Assembly (NCBI RefSeq): GCF_027487935.1
Contig: NZ_JAIYCP010000033.1
Location: 111,872-175,871 of the forward strand
Reading direction: 5' to 3'
From: Brevundimonas sp.
GTDB taxonomy: Bacteria > Pseudomonadota > Alphaproteobacteria > Caulobacterales > Caulobacteraceae
DNA length: 64,000 nt
Under the pieces are notes generated by a model. It ran no database searches, was not told the DNA's origin, and saw only the letters and a list, made by a program, of their open reading frames with translations. Of this stretch, positions 32,050 to 39,169 are shown piece after piece. The stretch's first letter is position 1, and each line of letters begins with the position of its first letter. Made by a program: the position numbers and the translations under genes.

Positions 32050-32468
32050 TGGCGGACATCGACCTCACCGGCCGCTGGACCGGCGTCTATTTCTACCCCG
32101 TGGACCCGGTCCATAATCCCTTCGACGACTGCCCGCCGACGCCGTTCCTCGCCGAGCTGAGCGATGTCGCAGGCACGGTGACGGGCACGACCTCGGAGCC
32201 GGACGTGATGTACGATGCCTCGGCCATCATCCCGTCCGTCATCGACGGCAGCCATGACGGCAGCACCCTTCGCTTCGTCAAGTTCAGCGACGCGCCGGAA
32301 GGCTTTGAAGACGCGATCCACTACGAAGGGGCCATCTCCAGCGATGGTCTGACCGTCGAGGGTCGATGGAGCATCCTTGATGATTGGTCGGGGACGTTCC
32401 GGATGCAGCGTCAGTCGGGCGTGGCGGCCAGTCTCGAAGCCGAGGCGGCGGACAGCCTGGCCCTATAG
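32049..32468 (+). CDS. Hypothetical protein, translationally coupled to the gamma-glutamyltransferase
   Basis: Encodes 139 residues, MADIDLTGRWTGVYFYPVDP then TPFLAELSDVAGTVTGTTSE and SDGLTVEGRWSILDDWSGTF. The beta-rich pattern with repeated GRW motifs suggests a small lipocalin-like beta barrel, but no family is certain. It shares one base with the preceding stop, so it is in the same operon. Its end overlaps the end of hslO by six bases (convergent). Confidence 0.65.
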   Translation: MADIDLTGRWTGVYFYPVDPVHNPFDDCPPTPFLAELSDVAGTVTGTTSEPDVMYDASAIIPSVIDGSHDGSTLRFVKFSDAPEGFEDAIHYEGAISSDGLTVEGRWSILDDWSGTFRMQRQSGVAASLEAEAADSLAL

Positions 32469-33398
32469 GACCTGGCCCGCCACCACCTCTTCCGGCGCCA
32501 GGTCATAGACCGTCGCGCAGTATTCGCAGGTCACACGGATCTTGCCGTCGGCCTCGACCATGTCGGCCCGCTCGGCCGGGTCGAACGAGGTCAGCACCCC
32601 TGCGATCCGCTCACGCGAGCAGCGGCACTGGGCCACCAGGGCCAGGGCATCCTCCAGCCGCACCCCGTCTTCATGGAACAGGCGGAACAGCAGGACTTCA
32701 GGCGTGATCGTCGGATCCAGCAGTTCGTCATCGGCCAGGGTCTGGAACAGGGCCCGCGAGCGGTCCCAGGCCTCCTCGGTCGAGCCGCGCGCCTCATCGC
32801 CGGCGATCAGCTGGATCAGCGCCCCGCCGGCACGCCAGCCGACGCCCTCATCGGTCACCACCGAGCCGACCGCCAGCCGCACCCGGGTCGGGATCTGTTC
32901 GGACTGCTGGAAATAGTGTTCCGCCGCCAGCGACAGGCTCTCGCCCTCGATCGGGGTGATGCCCTGGGTCCGTTCGAAGTCCGGGCCGCGATCCAGCGTC
33001 ATCACGAACACCCCCTGCCCCAGCAGCGAGCGCGCGCCGGGGCGGGCAAAGCCCTGCGACGCCGCCGCCACCTCGGCCTCGTCGAACCGGCAGTAGCCGC
33101 GCATCTGGCCGTCGGTGCCATAGTCAGCGACCACATAGCGAACCGGCCCGTCGCCCTGCGCCTGCACGATCAGCCGGCCCTCGAACTTGAGGCTGGAGCC
33201 CACCAGGGCGGCAAGCGCGCAGGCCTCGCCCAGCAGGGCCGCAACCGGCTCGGGATAGGCATGGGCCGACAGGATGGTGTCGATGGTCTGGCCCAGCCGC
33301 ACGATCCGGCCACGCACAGGCCAGCCCTCGATCTGGAAGGCAGCGGCCAGATCGTCGGCGGGCGCGGTGGCGGCGTGGTCATGCGCCTGATCGGTCAC
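32463..33398 (-). CDS. hslO: Hsp33 family redox-regulated chaperone
   Basis: Encodes 311 residues. Hsp33 becomes an active holdase when oxidants release zinc from four cysteines, here CRC (in VAQCRCSRERI) and CEYC (in VTCEYCATVYDL), both intact. The N-terminal domain shows GRIVRLGQTIDTILSAH and AALVGSSLKFEGRLIVQAQG. It is cytoplasmic and ATP-independent. An N-terminal Ala/His-rich tail of about 15 residues is variable. It is divergent from the SDR gene. Confidence 0.93.
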   Translation of the reverse strand: MTDQAHDHAATAPADDLAAAFQIEGWPVRGRIVRLGQTIDTILSAHAYPEPVAALLGEACALAALVGSSLKFEGRLIVQAQGDGPVRYVVADYGTDGQMRGYCRFDEAEVAAASQGFARPGARSLLGQGVFVMTLDRGPDFERTQGITPIEGESLSLAAEHYFQQSEQIPTRVRLAVGSVVTDEGVGWRAGGALIQLIAGDEARGSTEEAWDRSRALFQTLADDELLDPTITPEVLLFRLFHEDGVRLEDALALVAQCRCSRERIAGVLTSFDPAERADMVEADGKIRVTCEYCATVYDLAPEEVVAGQVL

Positions 33399-33550
33399 GG
33401 TCGGTCCTTGGAAAGCGGCGGGGGCGGCGAAGCGACGTCAGATAGGCGCACCAGTCGCGAATGATAAGACCTGCGTGCTACAGCAGGAACCGGCGCGGGT
33501 TCGGCACCCGTCCCAGCCACCCGTTCTGACCACACCGACCCGGCGGTTTC

Positions 33551-34957
33551 ATGACCAAAGCGACGCTCAAGCCCCTGAACCAGCAGTCCATTGTCATCAC
33601 CGGTGCCACCTCCGGCATCGGGCTGGCGACAGCGCGCCGCGCCGCGCGGGCCGGGGCCTGTGTTTTCCTGATCGCGCGCAGCGAAGCCGATCTGAAGGCC
33701 CTGACCGAGGAACTCCAGGCCACCGGTGCGCGGGCCGCCTGGGCCGTGGCCGATGTGGCCGACCATGCCGCCCTGTCCGAAGCGGCCGGGAAGTGCGTGC
33801 GCCTGTTCGGCGGCTTCGACACCTGGGTCAACAACGCCGGCGTCTCGATCTACGGCACCATCAGCGTGACCAGCCTGGAAGACCAGCGACGGCTGTTCGA
33901 GACCAACTACTGGGGCGTGGTCAACGGCTCGCTGGTGGCGGCAGAGCATCTGCGCAAACGCTACAACGGCGGGGCCATCGTCAATGTCGGATCGATCCTG
34001 TCGGACGCGCCCCTGCCCATCCAGGGCGTCTATTCGGCCTCCAAACATGCGGTGAAGGGATTCACCAACGCCCTGCGCATGGAGATGATGCGCGAACAGG
34101 CCCCGATCACGGTCAGCCTCGTCAAGCCGGCCGCGGTCGACAGCGCCTTCAGCAAGCACGCGCGCAACCTGACCGGCTATGCGACCCAGAACCCCCAACC
34201 GGTCTATGCGACCCATGTGGTGGCCGACACCATCCTGTACTGCGCCAGCCACCCGATCCGCGAGATCACCGTCGGCGGTGGCGGCCGGCTGATCGCCAGC
34301 TTCTATTCGGTCCTGCCCGGTCTGGCGGAACCACTCTTCGCCCGGTTCGCTCCGTCACTGATGCGGGACAGGCGCTCGGCCTGGGAACCGGACGAAGACG
34401 GGCTCTACGACCCGGGCGAAGACGGCCGCGCGGAAGAGGTTCACTATCCTATGGTCCGCCAGTTCTCCGCCCTCGCCGAAATCCGCAAACATCCCGGCAT
34501 CTCCAGCGGCGTCGTCGCCGTCCTGGCCGGGATCGGCATCGCCGCCCTGCTGCTCAACCAGCGCAGCAGACCGACCCGCTCCGAGCGCCTGCGCGGCCGC
34601 ATCTCCCACCGCGGCTGGATCGACACCGGGGCCCTGCATGACCGCTTTGGCGGCATGGCCCAGGCCCTTCGCCGGAGCCTGTCCGAGGCCGGCGAACGCG
34701 CGGCGGATCTCGGCGGCGACGCCCGCCATCGTGGCGAACAGGTCCTCCGCGGCGCACGACATTCCTCGCGCAAGGCCCTGAAGAAGCACGGCAAGACGGC
34801 GCAGCGTTACGCCCATGACGCCGGTACCTACGCCCGGGGCCATGCGAAGGAAGGCGGTGCCCTGCTGGCCCTGGCCACCATCGCCGCCGCCATCGGGGCC
34901 GCCGCCCTCGACGTCCGCCGCCCCGACAGCCGCATTCGCAAACTCGGCAAGTTCTAG
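33551..34957 (+). CDS. SDR family oxidoreductase with long C-terminal extension
   Basis: Encodes 468 residues. The Rossmann SDR core (about 10-260) has TGATSGIG, NNAGVSIYG and active-site YSASK, all intact; NADP(H) preference is likely from the Arg after the second strand (IARSE). The C-terminal third holds a TM-like segment GISSGVVAVLAGIGIAALLL, a basic amphipathic region and a second hydrophobic helix GALLALATIAAAIGAAALDV, so the enzyme may be membrane associated. The substrate is unknown. The divergent neighbour is hslO. Confidence 0.8.
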   Translation: MTKATLKPLNQQSIVITGATSGIGLATARRAARAGACVFLIARSEADLKALTEELQATGARAAWAVADVADHAALSEAAGKCVRLFGGFDTWVNNAGVSIYGTISVTSLEDQRRLFETNYWGVVNGSLVAAEHLRKRYNGGAIVNVGSILSDAPLPIQGVYSASKHAVKGFTNALRMEMMREQAPITVSLVKPAAVDSAFSKHARNLTGYATQNPQPVYATHVVADTILYCASHPIREITVGGGGRLIASFYSVLPGLAEPLFARFAPSLMRDRRSAWEPDEDGLYDPGEDGRAEEVHYPMVRQFSALAEIRKHPGISSGVVAVLAGIGIAALLLNQRSRPTRSERLRGRISHRGWIDTGALHDRFGGMAQALRRSLSEAGERAADLGGDARHRGEQVLRGARHSSRKALKKHGKTAQRYAHDAGTYARGHAKEGGALLALATIAAAIGAAALDVRRPDSRIRKLGKF

Positions 34958-35375
34958 GGCTGACTTCAGTCGATGACGGTCCGAGCTTTTGTCATCCCCG
35001 ACGGAGCGAAGCGAAGATCGGGGACGGTTCAAACACCCATTCTCTGACCTCCCGGACAGCCCGCTTGGGCTGAGCCGGGAGCAAGCCTGCCACTGCACGG
35101 GAAGCACCGGATTGTTCCGCGCGCATTGATGCGGTGCCAACGGCCGCAGCAACCTCCGCCCGTCTCCCGGCTCAGCCCAAGGGGGCTGTCCGGGAGGGGC
35201 CACAGGAGTGACCTAAGCGGTCCCCGATCTTCGCTTCGCTACGTCGGGGATGACAAGGGGCCAATGCCACCCCACACCGAGATCATTCCGGATCCAGTTA
35301 GACGCTCTGGACTCTGTTTTCCGTCAGCCGTCGCCAGCTATTGCTGCAAGTGCGAAGGTCGGCCAAGGTCCCTGC
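34958..35375. other. 418-bp gene-free region upstream of the serine biosynthesis fusion gene
   Basis: No gene is supported; ORF 35126..35383 and the upstream part of 35250..37268 are translations of repeat sequence. The region holds a 264-bp nested palindromic element (34991-35254) and about 120 bp of leader before ATG 35376, whose composition is less GC-rich and probably contains the promoter. Confidence 0.6.
34991..35254. repeat. Nested palindromic element with two pairs of ~35-bp arms
   Basis: Outer arms: GTCATCCCCGACGGAGCG (34991-35025) pairs with CGTCGGGGATGAC ending at 35254 (35220-35254). Inner arms: CCTCCCGGACAGCCC (35048-35081) pairs with GGGCTGTCCGGGAGG (35164-35197). Both pairs are nearly perfect over about 34 bases. 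Confidence 0.8.
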
Positions 35376-37268
35376 ATGGCTGAGCCGACCACCTATGTCT
35401 TCGATTTCGATTCCACCCTCGTGCGCATCGAGACGCTGGAGGCCCTGGCCGACATCGCCCTGGCCGGGGTCCCCGACGCCGCCGCGATCCGCGCCGAGGT
35501 CGCAGCCCTGACCGATCAGGCCATGACCGGCGAGCTGCCGTTCGGCGAGGCCCTGAAACGACGCCTCGCCCTCCTGCCCCTGACCCGGGACCATGTCGCC
35601 GAACTGGCCGCCCGCATCCTCGATGAGGGCACACCCTCGGTGCGCCGCAATCTGCGCTTCTTCCGCGAGCATGCGGGCCGGATCGTCATCCTGTCGGGCG
35701 GTTTCCGCGAGATCATCGCCCCCCTCGCCGCCCATCTCCACGTCCCGGCGGAACAGGTGCTCTGCAATGACCTGCTCCATGACGCCGAAGGCCGGGTCAC
35801 GGGCGTCGATCAGGCCAATCCCCTGTCACAGGCCGGCGGCAAGCCCCTCGTCCTCCGTGGGCTGGGCCTGACCGGCCCCGTGGTCATGATCGGCGACGGC
35901 TGGACCGATGCCGAGGTCAAGCTGGCCGGGGCCGCCGATCGCTTCCACGCCTTCACCGAGGTCGTGCGCCGTGAGCGGGTCGTCGCCGCCGCCGACGCCG
36001 AGGCCCCGTCGATGGACGAGTTCCTGCATGCCGAGGGCCTCGCCGGCCGTTGGTCCTACCCCCGCGCCCGCATCCGCATCCTGCTGCTCGAGAACATCCA
36101 TCCCGCCGCCGTCGAGCGGCTTGAAGAAGCGGGCTATTCGGTCGAATCGCACAAGGGGGCGCTGGACGAGGACGCCCTGGTTGAGGCGGTTCGCGGCGTC
36201 CATGTGCTGGGCGTCCGCTCCAAGACCCAGGTCAGCGCCCGCGTGCTGGAGGCCGCCGATCGTCTGATGGCCGTGGCCGCCTTCTGCATCGGCACCAACC
36301 AGATTGACCTCGAGGCCGCGGCCGGCCGGGGCGTGGCTGTGTTCAATGCCCCCTATTCCAACACCCGATCCGTGGTCGAACTGGCCGTCGGCCTGACCAT
36401 CGCCCTGCTGCGTGACCTGGCCGACAAGTCCGCCGCCATGCACCGCGGCCAGTGGAACAAGTCCGCGACCGGCTCGCGCGAGCTGCGCGGCAAGACCCTC
36501 GGCATCATCGGCTATGGCGCCATCGGCTCCCAGCTGTCCGTTCTGGCCGAAGGCCTCGGCATGCGGGTCATCTTCCACGACCTGACCGAACGCCTGGCCC
36601 TCGGCAACGCCCGTCGCATGGCCTCGCTCGACGCCGTTCTGGCCGAAAGCGACGTGGTCAGCCTTCATGTCGACGGCCGCACCGAAAACACCGCCCTGAT
36701 CGGCGCGACCCAGCTGTCGCGCATGAAGCAGGGCGCCCTGCTGCTGAACCTGTCACGCGGTCATGTGGTCGATGTCGGGGCCCTGGCCCAGGCCCTCGGC
36801 TCCGGCCGAATCGGCGGCGCGGCGGTGGATGTCTTCCCCGAGGAGCCCGCCACCAACGCCGACCCGTTCGACAGCCCCCTGCGCGGCCTGCCCAATGTGA
36901 TCCTGACGCCCCATATCGGCGGCTCGACCGAAGAGGCCCAGGAGGCCATCGGCGAATTCGCCGCCGAACGGCTGCTGGCCTATCTGAACCGGGGCGACAC
37001 CACCTTCTGCGTCAACCTGCCGAATGTGCAGCTGGCCGAGGTCGACGGGGCCCACCGCATCCTGCACATCCACCGCAACCAGCCGGGCGTGCTGGCCGAG
37101 TTGAACCGGGCGCTCGCGACCGCCGGGCTGAACATACTGGGCCAGCATCTGAAGACCGACGAACGCACCGGATATGTGATCACAGACGTCGATCGCGACT
37201 ATGATCCGGAGGCCTTGCACGGCCTTCGCACTGTGGCCGGAACGCTGCGGTTCCGCACCTTGCATTAA
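35376..37268 (+). CDS. serA: Fusion: phosphoserine phosphatase (SerB) - D-3-phosphoglycerate dehydrogenase (SerA)
   Basis: Encodes 630 residues from ATG 35376. Residues 1-225 are a HAD phosphatase: DFDSTLV (nucleophile D10, acid D12), SGGF in ILSGGFREI, and MIGDGWTDAEV for the metal Asp residues. From about residue 228 there is an E. coli-type SerA: RARIRILLLENIHPAAVERL, NAD motif GYGAIG (G379), RG of LSRGHVVD, acid FPEEP, catalytic HIGGSTEEAQ, and a C-terminal ACT domain (HRNQPGVLAELNRALA). The fused steps are the first and third of serine synthesis; SerC acts between them. All motifs look intact, so both activities are likely. The ACT domain suggests serine feedback. Confidence 0.92.
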   Translation: MAEPTTYVFDFDSTLVRIETLEALADIALAGVPDAAAIRAEVAALTDQAMTGELPFGEALKRRLALLPLTRDHVAELAARILDEGTPSVRRNLRFFREHAGRIVILSGGFREIIAPLAAHLHVPAEQVLCNDLLHDAEGRVTGVDQANPLSQAGGKPLVLRGLGLTGPVVMIGDGWTDAEVKLAGAADRFHAFTEVVRRERVVAAADAEAPSMDEFLHAEGLAGRWSYPRARIRILLLENIHPAAVERLEEAGYSVESHKGALDEDALVEAVRGVHVLGVRSKTQVSARVLEAADRLMAVAAFCIGTNQIDLEAAAGRGVAVFNAPYSNTRSVVELAVGLTIALLRDLADKSAAMHRGQWNKSATGSRELRGKTLGIIGYGAIGSQLSVLAEGLGMRVIFHDLTERLALGNARRMASLDAVLAESDVVSLHVDGRTENTALIGATQLSRMKQGALLLNLSRGHVVDVGALAQALGSGRIGGAAVDVFPEEPATNADPFDSPLRGLPNVILTPHIGGSTEEAQEAIGEFAAERLLAYLNRGDTTFCVNLPNVQLAEVDGAHRILHIHRNQPGVLAELNRALATAGLNILGQHLKTDERTGYVITDVDRDYDPEALHGLRTVAGTLRFRTLH

Positions 37269-37357
37269 AACCTTACCCAGCGGCATCTTGCGCGCGTGCG
37301 AAACGGGCGCACAATGTGAATAACGGTCGCATGATGACGGCCGAAGGAGGATCATCG

Positions 37358-39169
37358 ATGTCTCGTTTTCTGCGCCATGCTGCGCTTGCTGCCCTGACGG
37401 TCGCCGCAGCCGGCACCATCGCTTCTGCCGCCAGCGCCCAGAGCTACAGCCGCCTGGTCGTTTTCGGCGACAGCCTGAGTGACAACGGCAACCTGTTTGC
37501 CGCAACCGGCGGTGCCTCCCCCGGCGCGCCCAATTTCCAGGGCCGGTTCTCGAACGGTGCCGTGTTCACCGAGCGGCTGGGCTTTACCGCAGGCCGATAT
37601 GCCGCCGGCGCTTCCGTCACCGGCAGCATCAACTACGCCTTCGGCGGCGCGCGCACCGACACCCAGGCCTTGCCGCTCGGCATGCGCAACCAGCTCCTGG
37701 CCTATACGGGCGCGGGCGGCACCTTCCGCTCGACCGATCTGGTCAGCATTCTCGGCGGTGCGAACAACATCTTCCAGGGCCTGCCGGCCGCCGGTGCCTC
37801 GTCGAACCCGACCGGTGCCATCACGCCCGTCGTCACAGCGGCCGTCGCTGACATGGCCTTCCTGGTCAACAGCATTGCGGCCGCCGGTGCCGGTACGATC
37901 CTGGTCGGCAACATTCCGAGCCTCGGAAACGCGCCGGCGTTCCGTGGCACCGCCGCTGCTCCGCTGGCCGAGTTTGCCGGTACCTCGTTCAACAGCGGCC
38001 TGCTCAACGCAATGATGACGACGGCGGCTGCCCGCCCGGGCACCAACATCATCCTGTTCGATATCTTCAAGATCGGCACGACCCTGACCGCAAATCCGGG
38101 AGCCTTCGGCCTGACCAATGTCACCGATGCCTGCTTCAACGGGGTCACGGTCTGCGCAACGCCCAACACCTATCTGTTCTGGGATAGCGTCCACCCGACC
38201 GCCGCCGGCCACCAGCTGATCGCCCAGCTGGCCAATGACTATCTCTACTATGGCGACATCGGTGCCCAATCGACCGTTCAGGCGGAAACCTCCTTCCGCC
38301 AGCGTGAGGACCTGCTCGACCTCGCCAGCGAAGGCATGTCCGGACGCGCCGCATGGCAGGCCGGAACCAACCTGACCTTCGGCGCCATCGCCGGCAGCGT
38401 CGAGACCGATGCCCGTGGCTCCGTGGCCGCTTCTGACACCACCGGCTACGGCTTCCGGGTCGGGGTGGACCATGTCATGTCACCGAGCGCGCGCTTCGGC
38501 TTCGCCGGGACCCTCCACACCGCCGATGTCGAGGCGGGAGCCATGATGTTCGACGTCAAGACCTATGCCTTCGACCTCTACGGCGGCTGGCGCTCGGGCG
38601 AGACCTTCATCAACGCCACGGTGGGCGGCTCAATCGATCACTATGACGACATCACCCGCCTCACCTCGCTGGCACCGGTCGTCCATACCGGCGAGACCAC
38701 GGGTGGCAGCCTCGGTGCCCGCGTTCAGGGCGGCGTGTGGATGAACATGGGCGGTATCGCCCTGTCGCCGCGGGTTGCGCTCAACTGGGGTTCGACCGAC
38801 GTCAACGGCTATATCGAACAGGGTCCGGCGGCCCAGTACAGCTACCAGGACCGTACGGTCCAGGCCGCCAGCGGCGAGATCTCGCTGCGAGCCGAAGGTG
38901 GCGACGAGGGCATGAGCTTCTTCGTCGAGGGGGGTTATCGCGACAGCTTCGCTGACAACAGTGACGCCGTGCGCACGGGGATCGCCGCCAACCCGGCCCA
39001 GATCCTCGCCCGCGAGATCGACGACCCGTTCGGCGGTTCGATGATCGCCTCGGCCGGTATCGAAGCCGATGTGGGACCGATGAAAATGACCGTGGGCTAC
39101 CGGGGTCGCTTCGGCGACAGCGCCGACAGCCATGTGGGTGCGGTGACCTTCCGCATGCCGCTGCCGTAG
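37358..39169 (+). CDS. GDSL esterase with C-terminal autotransporter domain
   Basis: Encodes 603 residues from ATG 37358, preceded by AAGGAGG; the ORF track starts 14 residues earlier. A signal peptide (to about 28, ASAQS) precedes an SGNH hydrolase: GDSLSDNGN (Ser39), Asn block LGGANNIFQG and catalytic Asp-His DSVHPTAAGH. From about residue 340 an autotransporter beta barrel is seen (VSFFVEGGYRDSF-like strands, alternating aromatic pattern), ending VTFRMPLP. It resembles Pseudomonas EstA, an outer-membrane esterase displayed on the cell surface. A terminator follows. Confidence 0.85.
   Translation: MSRFLRHAALAALTVAAAGTIASAASAQSYSRLVVFGDSLSDNGNLFAATGGASPGAPNFQGRFSNGAVFTERLGFTAGRYAAGASVTGSINYAFGGARTDTQALPLGMRNQLLAYTGAGGTFRSTDLVSILGGANNIFQGLPAAGASSNPTGAITPVVTAAVADMAFLVNSIAAAGAGTILVGNIPSLGNAPAFRGTAAAPLAEFAGTSFNSGLLNAMMTTAAARPGTNIILFDIFKIGTTLTANPGAFGLTNVTDACFNGVTVCATPNTYLFWDSVHPTAAGHQLIAQLANDYLYYGDIGAQSTVQAETSFRQREDLLDLASEGMSGRAAWQAGTNLTFGAIAGSVETDARGSVAASDTTGYGFRVGVDHVMSPSARFGFAGTLHTADVEAGAMMFDVKTYAFDLYGGWRSGETFINATVGGSIDHYDDITRLTSLAPVVHTGETTGGSLGARVQGGVWMNMGGIALSPRVALNWGSTDVNGYIEQGPAAQYSYQDRTVQAASGEISLRAEGGDEGMSFFVEGGYRDSFADNSDAVRTGIAANPAQILAREIDDPFGGSMIASAGIEADVGPMKMTVGYRGRFGDSADSHVGAVTFRMPLP

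What the first reader, a model, noticed from the sequence alone, without database searches (positions are those of the whole stretch)
35376..37268. Single-gene fusion of phosphoserine phosphatase and 3-phosphoglycerate dehydrogenase
One continuous 630-codon frame contains a complete HAD phosphatase (DFDSTLV, SGGF, GDGWTD) followed by a complete E. coli-type SerA with ACT domain. This joins the first and last steps of serine synthesis, skipping SerC. All catalytic motifs look intact, there is no stop or frameshift at the join near residue 228, and the ACT domain could let serine inhibit both ends. I cannot say how widespread the fusion is.
Basis: partly seen in the sequence, partly recalled or inferred. 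Interest (0 to 1): 0.7.

Follow-up and report, generated by a model that had tools for sequence, protein, structure and literature searches.

The report
Fused first-and-last serine synthesis enzyme
In Brevundimonas bacteria and two sister genera, the enzymes for the first and last steps of making serine are fused into one protein; in the window's genome this protein is the only detectable source of either activity, so a cell's serine supply very probably depends on it.

Summary
Window 35376-37268(+) is one open frame of 630 codons: an HAD-IB phosphatase (about 1-221) joined to a complete E. coli-type (type II, ACT-bearing) SerA (about 227-630). It is not an isolated oddity. The genome is Brevundimonas or very close to it. 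The fusion is present in 44 of 45 other genomes of that genus sampled and in two sister genera of the same family; no other fusion was seen in about 1,000 further proteobacterial genomes. The genome has no other credible SerB hit; its next 2-hydroxyacid dehydrogenases are only 32-33% identical to the SerA half. SerC is separate and far away. In 101 distinct fusion proteins the catalytic and substrate residues of both enzymes and the three serine-binding residues of the ACT domain are invariant (one S-to-T exception), and both halves are under purifying selection. Each half forms one clade, which fits a single fusion event. A distant alphaproteobacterium keeps the two genes unfused, same order, overlapping by 4 bases: a plausible precursor arrangement. 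Best reading: a bifunctional phosphoglycerate dehydrogenase / phosphoserine phosphatase that skips SerC, with a serine-inhibited SerA half. No paper describing it was found. Activity is untested.

The parts
35376..37268 (+). serB-serA fusion gene, 630 codons plus stop
   Evidence: start supported by the alignment of 101 homologues
35376..36038 (+). HAD-IB phosphoserine-phosphatase domain, residues 1-221 (D10, D12, T14, S107, G108, K156, D174, D178; specificity residues E19, M50, F56, R63)
   Evidence: Pfam PF12710; best solved relatives are human phosphoserine phosphatase, E 4e-25; invariance; AlphaFold pLDDT about 90 or more over most of 11-210
36009..36071 (+). join, residues 212-232 (consensus S.DE.L.aEG..GRWS[YF]PR.R): last helix of the phosphatase runs almost directly into the N-terminus of SerA
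   Evidence: near-invariant in 101 fusions; mean identity 0.81, above that of the HAD half at 0.71
36054..37265 (+). type II D-3-phosphoglycerate dehydrogenase (SerA), residues 227-630
   Evidence: NF008759 631 bits; E. coli SerA structures 1psd/1yba, E 1e-130 to 1e-129; R281, K362, R461, E490, H513 invariant
37059..37211 (+). ACT regulatory domain, residues 562-612, with serine-binding H566, N568, N586
   Evidence: PF22629; aligned to E. coli H344, N346, N364 (roles from PMC6300728)

Best explanation
The gene encodes a bifunctional enzyme. The C-terminal half oxidises 3-phosphoglycerate to 3-phosphohydroxypyruvate (step 1). The product leaves the protein, is transaminated by the separately encoded SerC (step 2), and the phosphoserine returns to the N-terminal half, which removes the phosphate to give serine (step 3). 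Step 1 is energetically uphill and step 3 is the irreversible one, so tying them together fixes a 1:1 ratio of the enzyme that must be pulled to the enzyme that pulls. Serine binding at the ACT domain should inhibit the dehydrogenase half. Shown here: the fused frame, intact sites, sole-copy status, purifying selection, one origin. Inferred: both activities, the serine inhibition, the tetrameric assembly and any kinetic benefit.
For: Domain matches. Own genome: a single SerB match, which is the fusion; SerC above cut-off on another contig; remaining 2-hydroxyacid dehydrogenases only 32-33% identical. In 101 distinct fusions: HAD catalytic D10, D12, T14, G108, K156, D174, D178 and phosphoserine-pocket E19, M50, F56, R63 are invariant, S107 is S in 100 and T in 1; SerA R281, K362, R461, E490, H513 and ACT H566, N568, N586 are invariant. 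Nonsynonymous change is well below synonymous change in both halves (dN/dS about 0.13-0.27 for HAD, 0.08-0.14 for SerA). Same two enzymes, same order, as overlapping genes in G502. Thermodynamic roles of the three steps are from the review PMC6300728.
Against: No activity is measured. The HAD half is under the SerB equivalog cut-off (85 against 144 bits), so its substrate rests on residues and context. Price et al. report SerB-like HADs that act as histidinol-phosphate phosphatases (PMC5764234). The absence of other phosphatases was tested only with the TIGR00338 profile. One genome of the genus, G143, lacks the fusion and any SerA-grade match.
Confidence: 0.86

Rival explanations
1. The HAD half is an active phosphatase but its main substrate is not phosphoserine (for example histidinol phosphate), and phosphoserine is handled by another, unrecognised phosphatase.
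For: Score under the SerB cut-off. SerB-like HADs with histidinol-phosphatase roles exist (PMC5764234). In algae a fused SerB-like HAD makes glycerol from glycerol-3-phosphate beside a dehydrogenase (PMC7468427).
Against: The residues that in phosphoserine phosphatases hold the serine amino and carboxyl groups (E and R; positions E19, R63, assignment from my own knowledge of PSP structures) are invariant; best solved relatives are human PSP; fusion to SerA and the unfused serB-serA gene pair point to serine; no other credible SerB in the genome.
Confidence: 0.08
2. The HAD half is catalytically weak or dead and serves as a structural or regulatory appendage of SerA.
For: The HAD half changes faster than the SerA half (mean identity 0.71 against 0.84).
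Against: All catalytic residues are kept in 101 sequences and dN/dS is well below 1; a dead copy would leave the genome without any SerB.
Confidence: 0.03
3. The apparent fusion is an annotation or assembly artefact of two adjacent genes.
For: A split, overlapping version exists in a distant relative.
Against: The same stop-free frame is seen in dozens of independently assembled genomes and three genera, and the join is one of the better conserved stretches.
Confidence: 0.01

Closest known systems
Type II D-3-phosphoglycerate dehydrogenase (E. coli SerA, PDB 1psd/1yba)
   Same: Whole domain order (substrate, NAD, ACT), catalytic residues and serine-binding residues; about 51-52% identity over the SerA half.
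   Different: Carries a phosphatase domain on its N-terminus; the E. coli Gly336-Gly337 hinge is not kept as Gly-Gly.
Human-type phosphoserine phosphatase (PDB 1l8l/1nnl)
   Same: HAD-IB motifs and phosphoserine-pocket residues; E 4e-25.
   Different: Free-standing enzyme in humans; here fused to SerA.
Algal bidomain PSP-GPDH (Dunaliella PDB 6iuy; Chlamydomonas)
   Same: N-terminal SerB-like phosphatase fused to a C-terminal NAD dehydrogenase.
   Different: Its dehydrogenase is glycerol-3-phosphate dehydrogenase, the product is glycerol, and the two steps are consecutive; here they are steps 1 and 3 of serine synthesis.
Oomycete and brown-algal PGDH-PSAT fusion
   Same: A natural fusion within the same serine pathway (PMC5715807, PMC2705460).
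   Different: Joins steps 1 and 2, in eukaryotes.
Unfused serB-serA gene pairs: G502 (same strand, overlapping by 4 bases), G043 and G179 (convergent neighbours)
   Same: Related HAD and type II SerA halves.
   Different: Two separate proteins.

Membership tests
Type II (ACT-bearing, E. coli-type) SerA | Full-length match above the equivalog cut-off | tested here: met
   NF008759 631 bits against cut-off 404
Type II (ACT-bearing, E. coli-type) SerA | Catalytic residues R60, K141', R240, E269, H292 (E. coli numbering) | tested here: met
   R281, K362, R461, E490, H513 in 101 of 101
Type II (ACT-bearing, E. coli-type) SerA | ACT serine-binding residues H344, N346, N364 | tested here: met
   H566, N568, N586 in 101 of 101 (roles from PMC6300728)
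Type II (ACT-bearing, E. coli-type) SerA | Serine inhibition measured | not testable with these tools
   needs an assay
Phosphoserine phosphatase (HAD-IB) | HAD motifs I-IV (DxDxT, S/T, K, GDxxxD) | tested here: met
   D10, D12, T14, S107, K156, D174, D178
Phosphoserine phosphatase (HAD-IB) | Substrate pocket residues as in solved PSPs (E, M, F, R) | tested here: met
   E19, M50, F56, R63 in 101 of 101, aligned with human PSP; pocket roles from own knowledge
Phosphoserine phosphatase, NCBI SerB equivalog TIGR00338 | Score above the curated cut-off | tested here: not met
   85 bits against 144. The human-like unfused relatives of other families also fall below it (78-92 bits), so it is not filed as a TIGR00338 SerB, only as a PSP-like HAD
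Phosphoserine phosphatase (HAD-IB) | Activity on phosphoserine | not testable with these tools
   needs an assay or complementation
Fusion with one evolutionary origin | Each half forms a single clade | tested here: met
   SerA half 100/100; HAD half 98/99

The most novel reading that the evidence does not exclude
The near-invariant join holds the two halves in a fixed arrangement, so that serine bound at the ACT domain also changes the phosphatase half, or so that SerC docks between the halves and phosphohydroxypyruvate and phosphoserine pass between sites: one tetramer acting as a serine-making assembly that couples two non-consecutive steps.
Probability: 0.15. Interest if true: 0.75.

Novelty: new variant of a known kind. 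Interest (0 to 1): 0.45.

Why it matters
Most known metabolic fusions join consecutive steps. This one joins the uphill first step and the irreversible last step of a three-step pathway and leaves the middle enzyme free, in an entire genus, as the only detectable copy of both. That makes it a natural test of whether fusion pays through substrate passage (hardly possible across a skipped step unless SerC docks) or through fixed dosage and shared feedback control. It also matters for annotation: best-hit pipelines would call it SerA alone and report a missing SerB, so Brevundimonas could be wrongly predicted to be a serine auxotroph.

Tried and rejected
Long open frames around SerA in some other proteobacteria (for example G872, 949 codons) looked like further fusions; the one examined (L161) starts in unrelated upstream sequence with no HAD match. 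The two-piece match in G005 looked like a re-split gene; it is a run of N in the assembly. Plasmid records: 2,887 had SerA-like or dehydrogenase matches, none covering 80% of the fusion. Rfam: no RNA element in 33000-38000. Literature: eight searches gave no paper on a SerB-SerA fusion and none naming Brevundimonas together with both enzymes; subscription papers and domain-architecture databases were not covered. AlphaFold gave a confident HAD half but a poor SerA half (pTM 0.46; many SerA stretches under 50), so the relative placement of the domains is not interpreted. Whether the unfused f4 family is the sister of the fusion was not resolved (35/89 in the SerA tree, open in the HAD tree). 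Fusions outside Proteobacteria were not searched beyond close relatives.

Full report
What is there. Window 35376-37268 on the + strand is a single open frame of 630 codons ending in one stop. Residues 8-179 match the HAD hydrolase domain, 235-547 the 2-hydroxyacid dehydrogenase catalytic and NAD domains, and 562-612 an ACT domain. The SerA half is a full-length equivalog of E. coli-type SerA (631 bits, cut-off 404). The HAD half is PSP-like but scores 85 bits against the SerB cut-off of 144. Among solved structures the HAD half is closest to human phosphoserine phosphatase (E 4e-25) and the SerA half to type II SerA structures including E. coli 1psd and 1yba.

Where it occurs. The window lies in a 2.65-Mb genome of completeness 100. 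Its nearest named relatives are Brevundimonas. Of the 37 same-genus genomes in the first search (own genome included), 35 carry the intact fusion and two are interrupted by assembly limits. In a draw of 398 genomes of the order, 51 carry the fusion: 45 of the same genus and six from two other genera of the same family (g17, g18). Another 46, all in family f4, carry a standalone type II SerA, and the others have no match at that threshold. Draws of 385 genomes of the class and 399 of the phylum gave standalone type II SerA only, apart from same-genus genomes. Other genera of the same family (g12-g15) instead have a long SerA matching at only 36-37%; the three checked for SerB have a canonical one (195-222 bits). 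In those three, SerC scores 690-700 bits and lies beside SerA. Fusion bearers and f4 have a different SerC grade (473-519 bits) encoded elsewhere. The fusion therefore belongs to an alternative serine-synthesis gene set within the order.

Is it the only copy? In the window's genome the SerB profile finds one match at E 0.001 or better, the fusion itself. SerC is above its cut-off on another contig. The next two dehydrogenases are 32-33% identical to the SerA half. So the fusion is the sole recognisable source of steps 1 and 3.

Are both halves functional? Across 101 distinct fusion proteins the HAD catalytic residues D10, D12, T14, G108, K156, D174 and D178 and the pocket residues E19, M50, F56 and R63 are invariant; S107 is threonine once. 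SerA R281, K362, R461, E490 and H513 are invariant, and so are the ACT residues H566, N568 and N586, which align with E. coli H344, N346 and N364 that bind serine (roles from PMC6300728). Comparing the window gene with six close relatives, dN/dS is about 0.13-0.27 for the HAD half and 0.08-0.14 for the SerA half (my Nei-Gojobori estimate). The join, residues 212-232, is nearly invariant and better conserved than the HAD domain as a whole. There is almost no spacer: the last phosphatase helix (213-219 in the model) is followed within about eight residues by the position matching residue 5 of E. coli SerA.

How it arose. In maximum-likelihood trees the fused SerA halves form one clade (100/100) and the fused HAD halves form one clade (98/99), consistent with one fusion event. 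The HAD half is separated from canonical Caulobacteraceae SerB by a 100/100 branch and groups with human PSP and with standalone HADs of f4, G502 and G451. In G502, a distant alphaproteobacterium, the standalone serB (L254 1471-2166) and serA (L254 2163-3398) lie on the same strand, in the order of the fusion, overlapping by 4 bases. This is the arrangement from which a frame change and loss of the stop would give a fusion, but G502 is not shown to be the actual ancestor state. In f4 the two genes are convergent neighbours (G043, G179), near each other (G189) or apart (G306).

Mechanism. Inference: phosphoglycerate dehydrogenase runs uphill (less than 5% as phosphohydroxypyruvate at equilibrium) and is pulled by the downstream enzymes, of which phosphoserine phosphatase is the point of no return (PMC6300728). 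Fusing the two fixes their ratio and puts them under one promoter, and serine should still inhibit the SerA half. Direct passage of intermediates between the two sites is not expected, because SerC acts in between, unless SerC docks on the complex. The AlphaFold model is good only for the HAD half, so domain arrangement is left open.

Comparison. Known fusions are the oomycete and brown-algal PGDH-PSAT protein (steps 1 and 2) and the algal PSP-GPDH protein that makes glycerol. No paper on a SerB-SerA fusion was found in the open-access library. The review of phosphoglycerate dehydrogenases in that library does not contain the words fusion or fused. The architecture is probably visible in protein databases as a domain arrangement, so I class it as a new variant of a known kind, not as categorically new.

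An exception worth noting. G143, of the same genus and 99% complete, lacks the fusion. Its phoU-phoB-hslO-SDR neighbourhood is continuous, and a serine-hydrolase gene (beta-lactamase-like, read by eye) follows the SDR gene, where the fusion gene follows it in the window. It keeps SerC. It has either lost serine synthesis or uses enzymes not recognised here.

Noticed in passing
window 34989-35256: Nested inverted repeats just upstream of the fusion gene: outer arms 34989-35025 / 35220-35256 (37 nt, 97%) and inner arms 35048-35081 / 35164-35197 (34 nt, 97%), like a small non-coding mobile element. Among fetched loci the exact outer motif is found only in the nearest relative, L023.
   Followed up: partly
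L274 (G143:C2:138000-150000): A same-genus genome without the fusion gene: a serine-hydrolase gene follows the hslO-SDR genes where the fusion follows them in the window; SerC is kept. Possible natural serine auxotroph.
   Followed up: partly
L254 1471-3398 (G502): Unfused serB and serA overlapping by 4 bases in the same order in a distant alphaproteobacterium, a plausible precursor arrangement.
   Followed up: yes
L236-L249: SerC falls into two score grades within the order (690-700 bits beside long SerA; 473-519 bits in fusion bearers and f4), so the whole serine set seems to have been exchanged.
   Followed up: partly
window 37316-39169: Downstream gene is a GDSL lipase with an autotransporter beta-domain; no evident link to serine synthesis.
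   Followed up: no
window 32463-33398 (-): Hsp33 (hslO) gene near the fusion gene; it is also near the fusion in G012, G031, G376, G289 and G412, but not in G035.
   Followed up: partly
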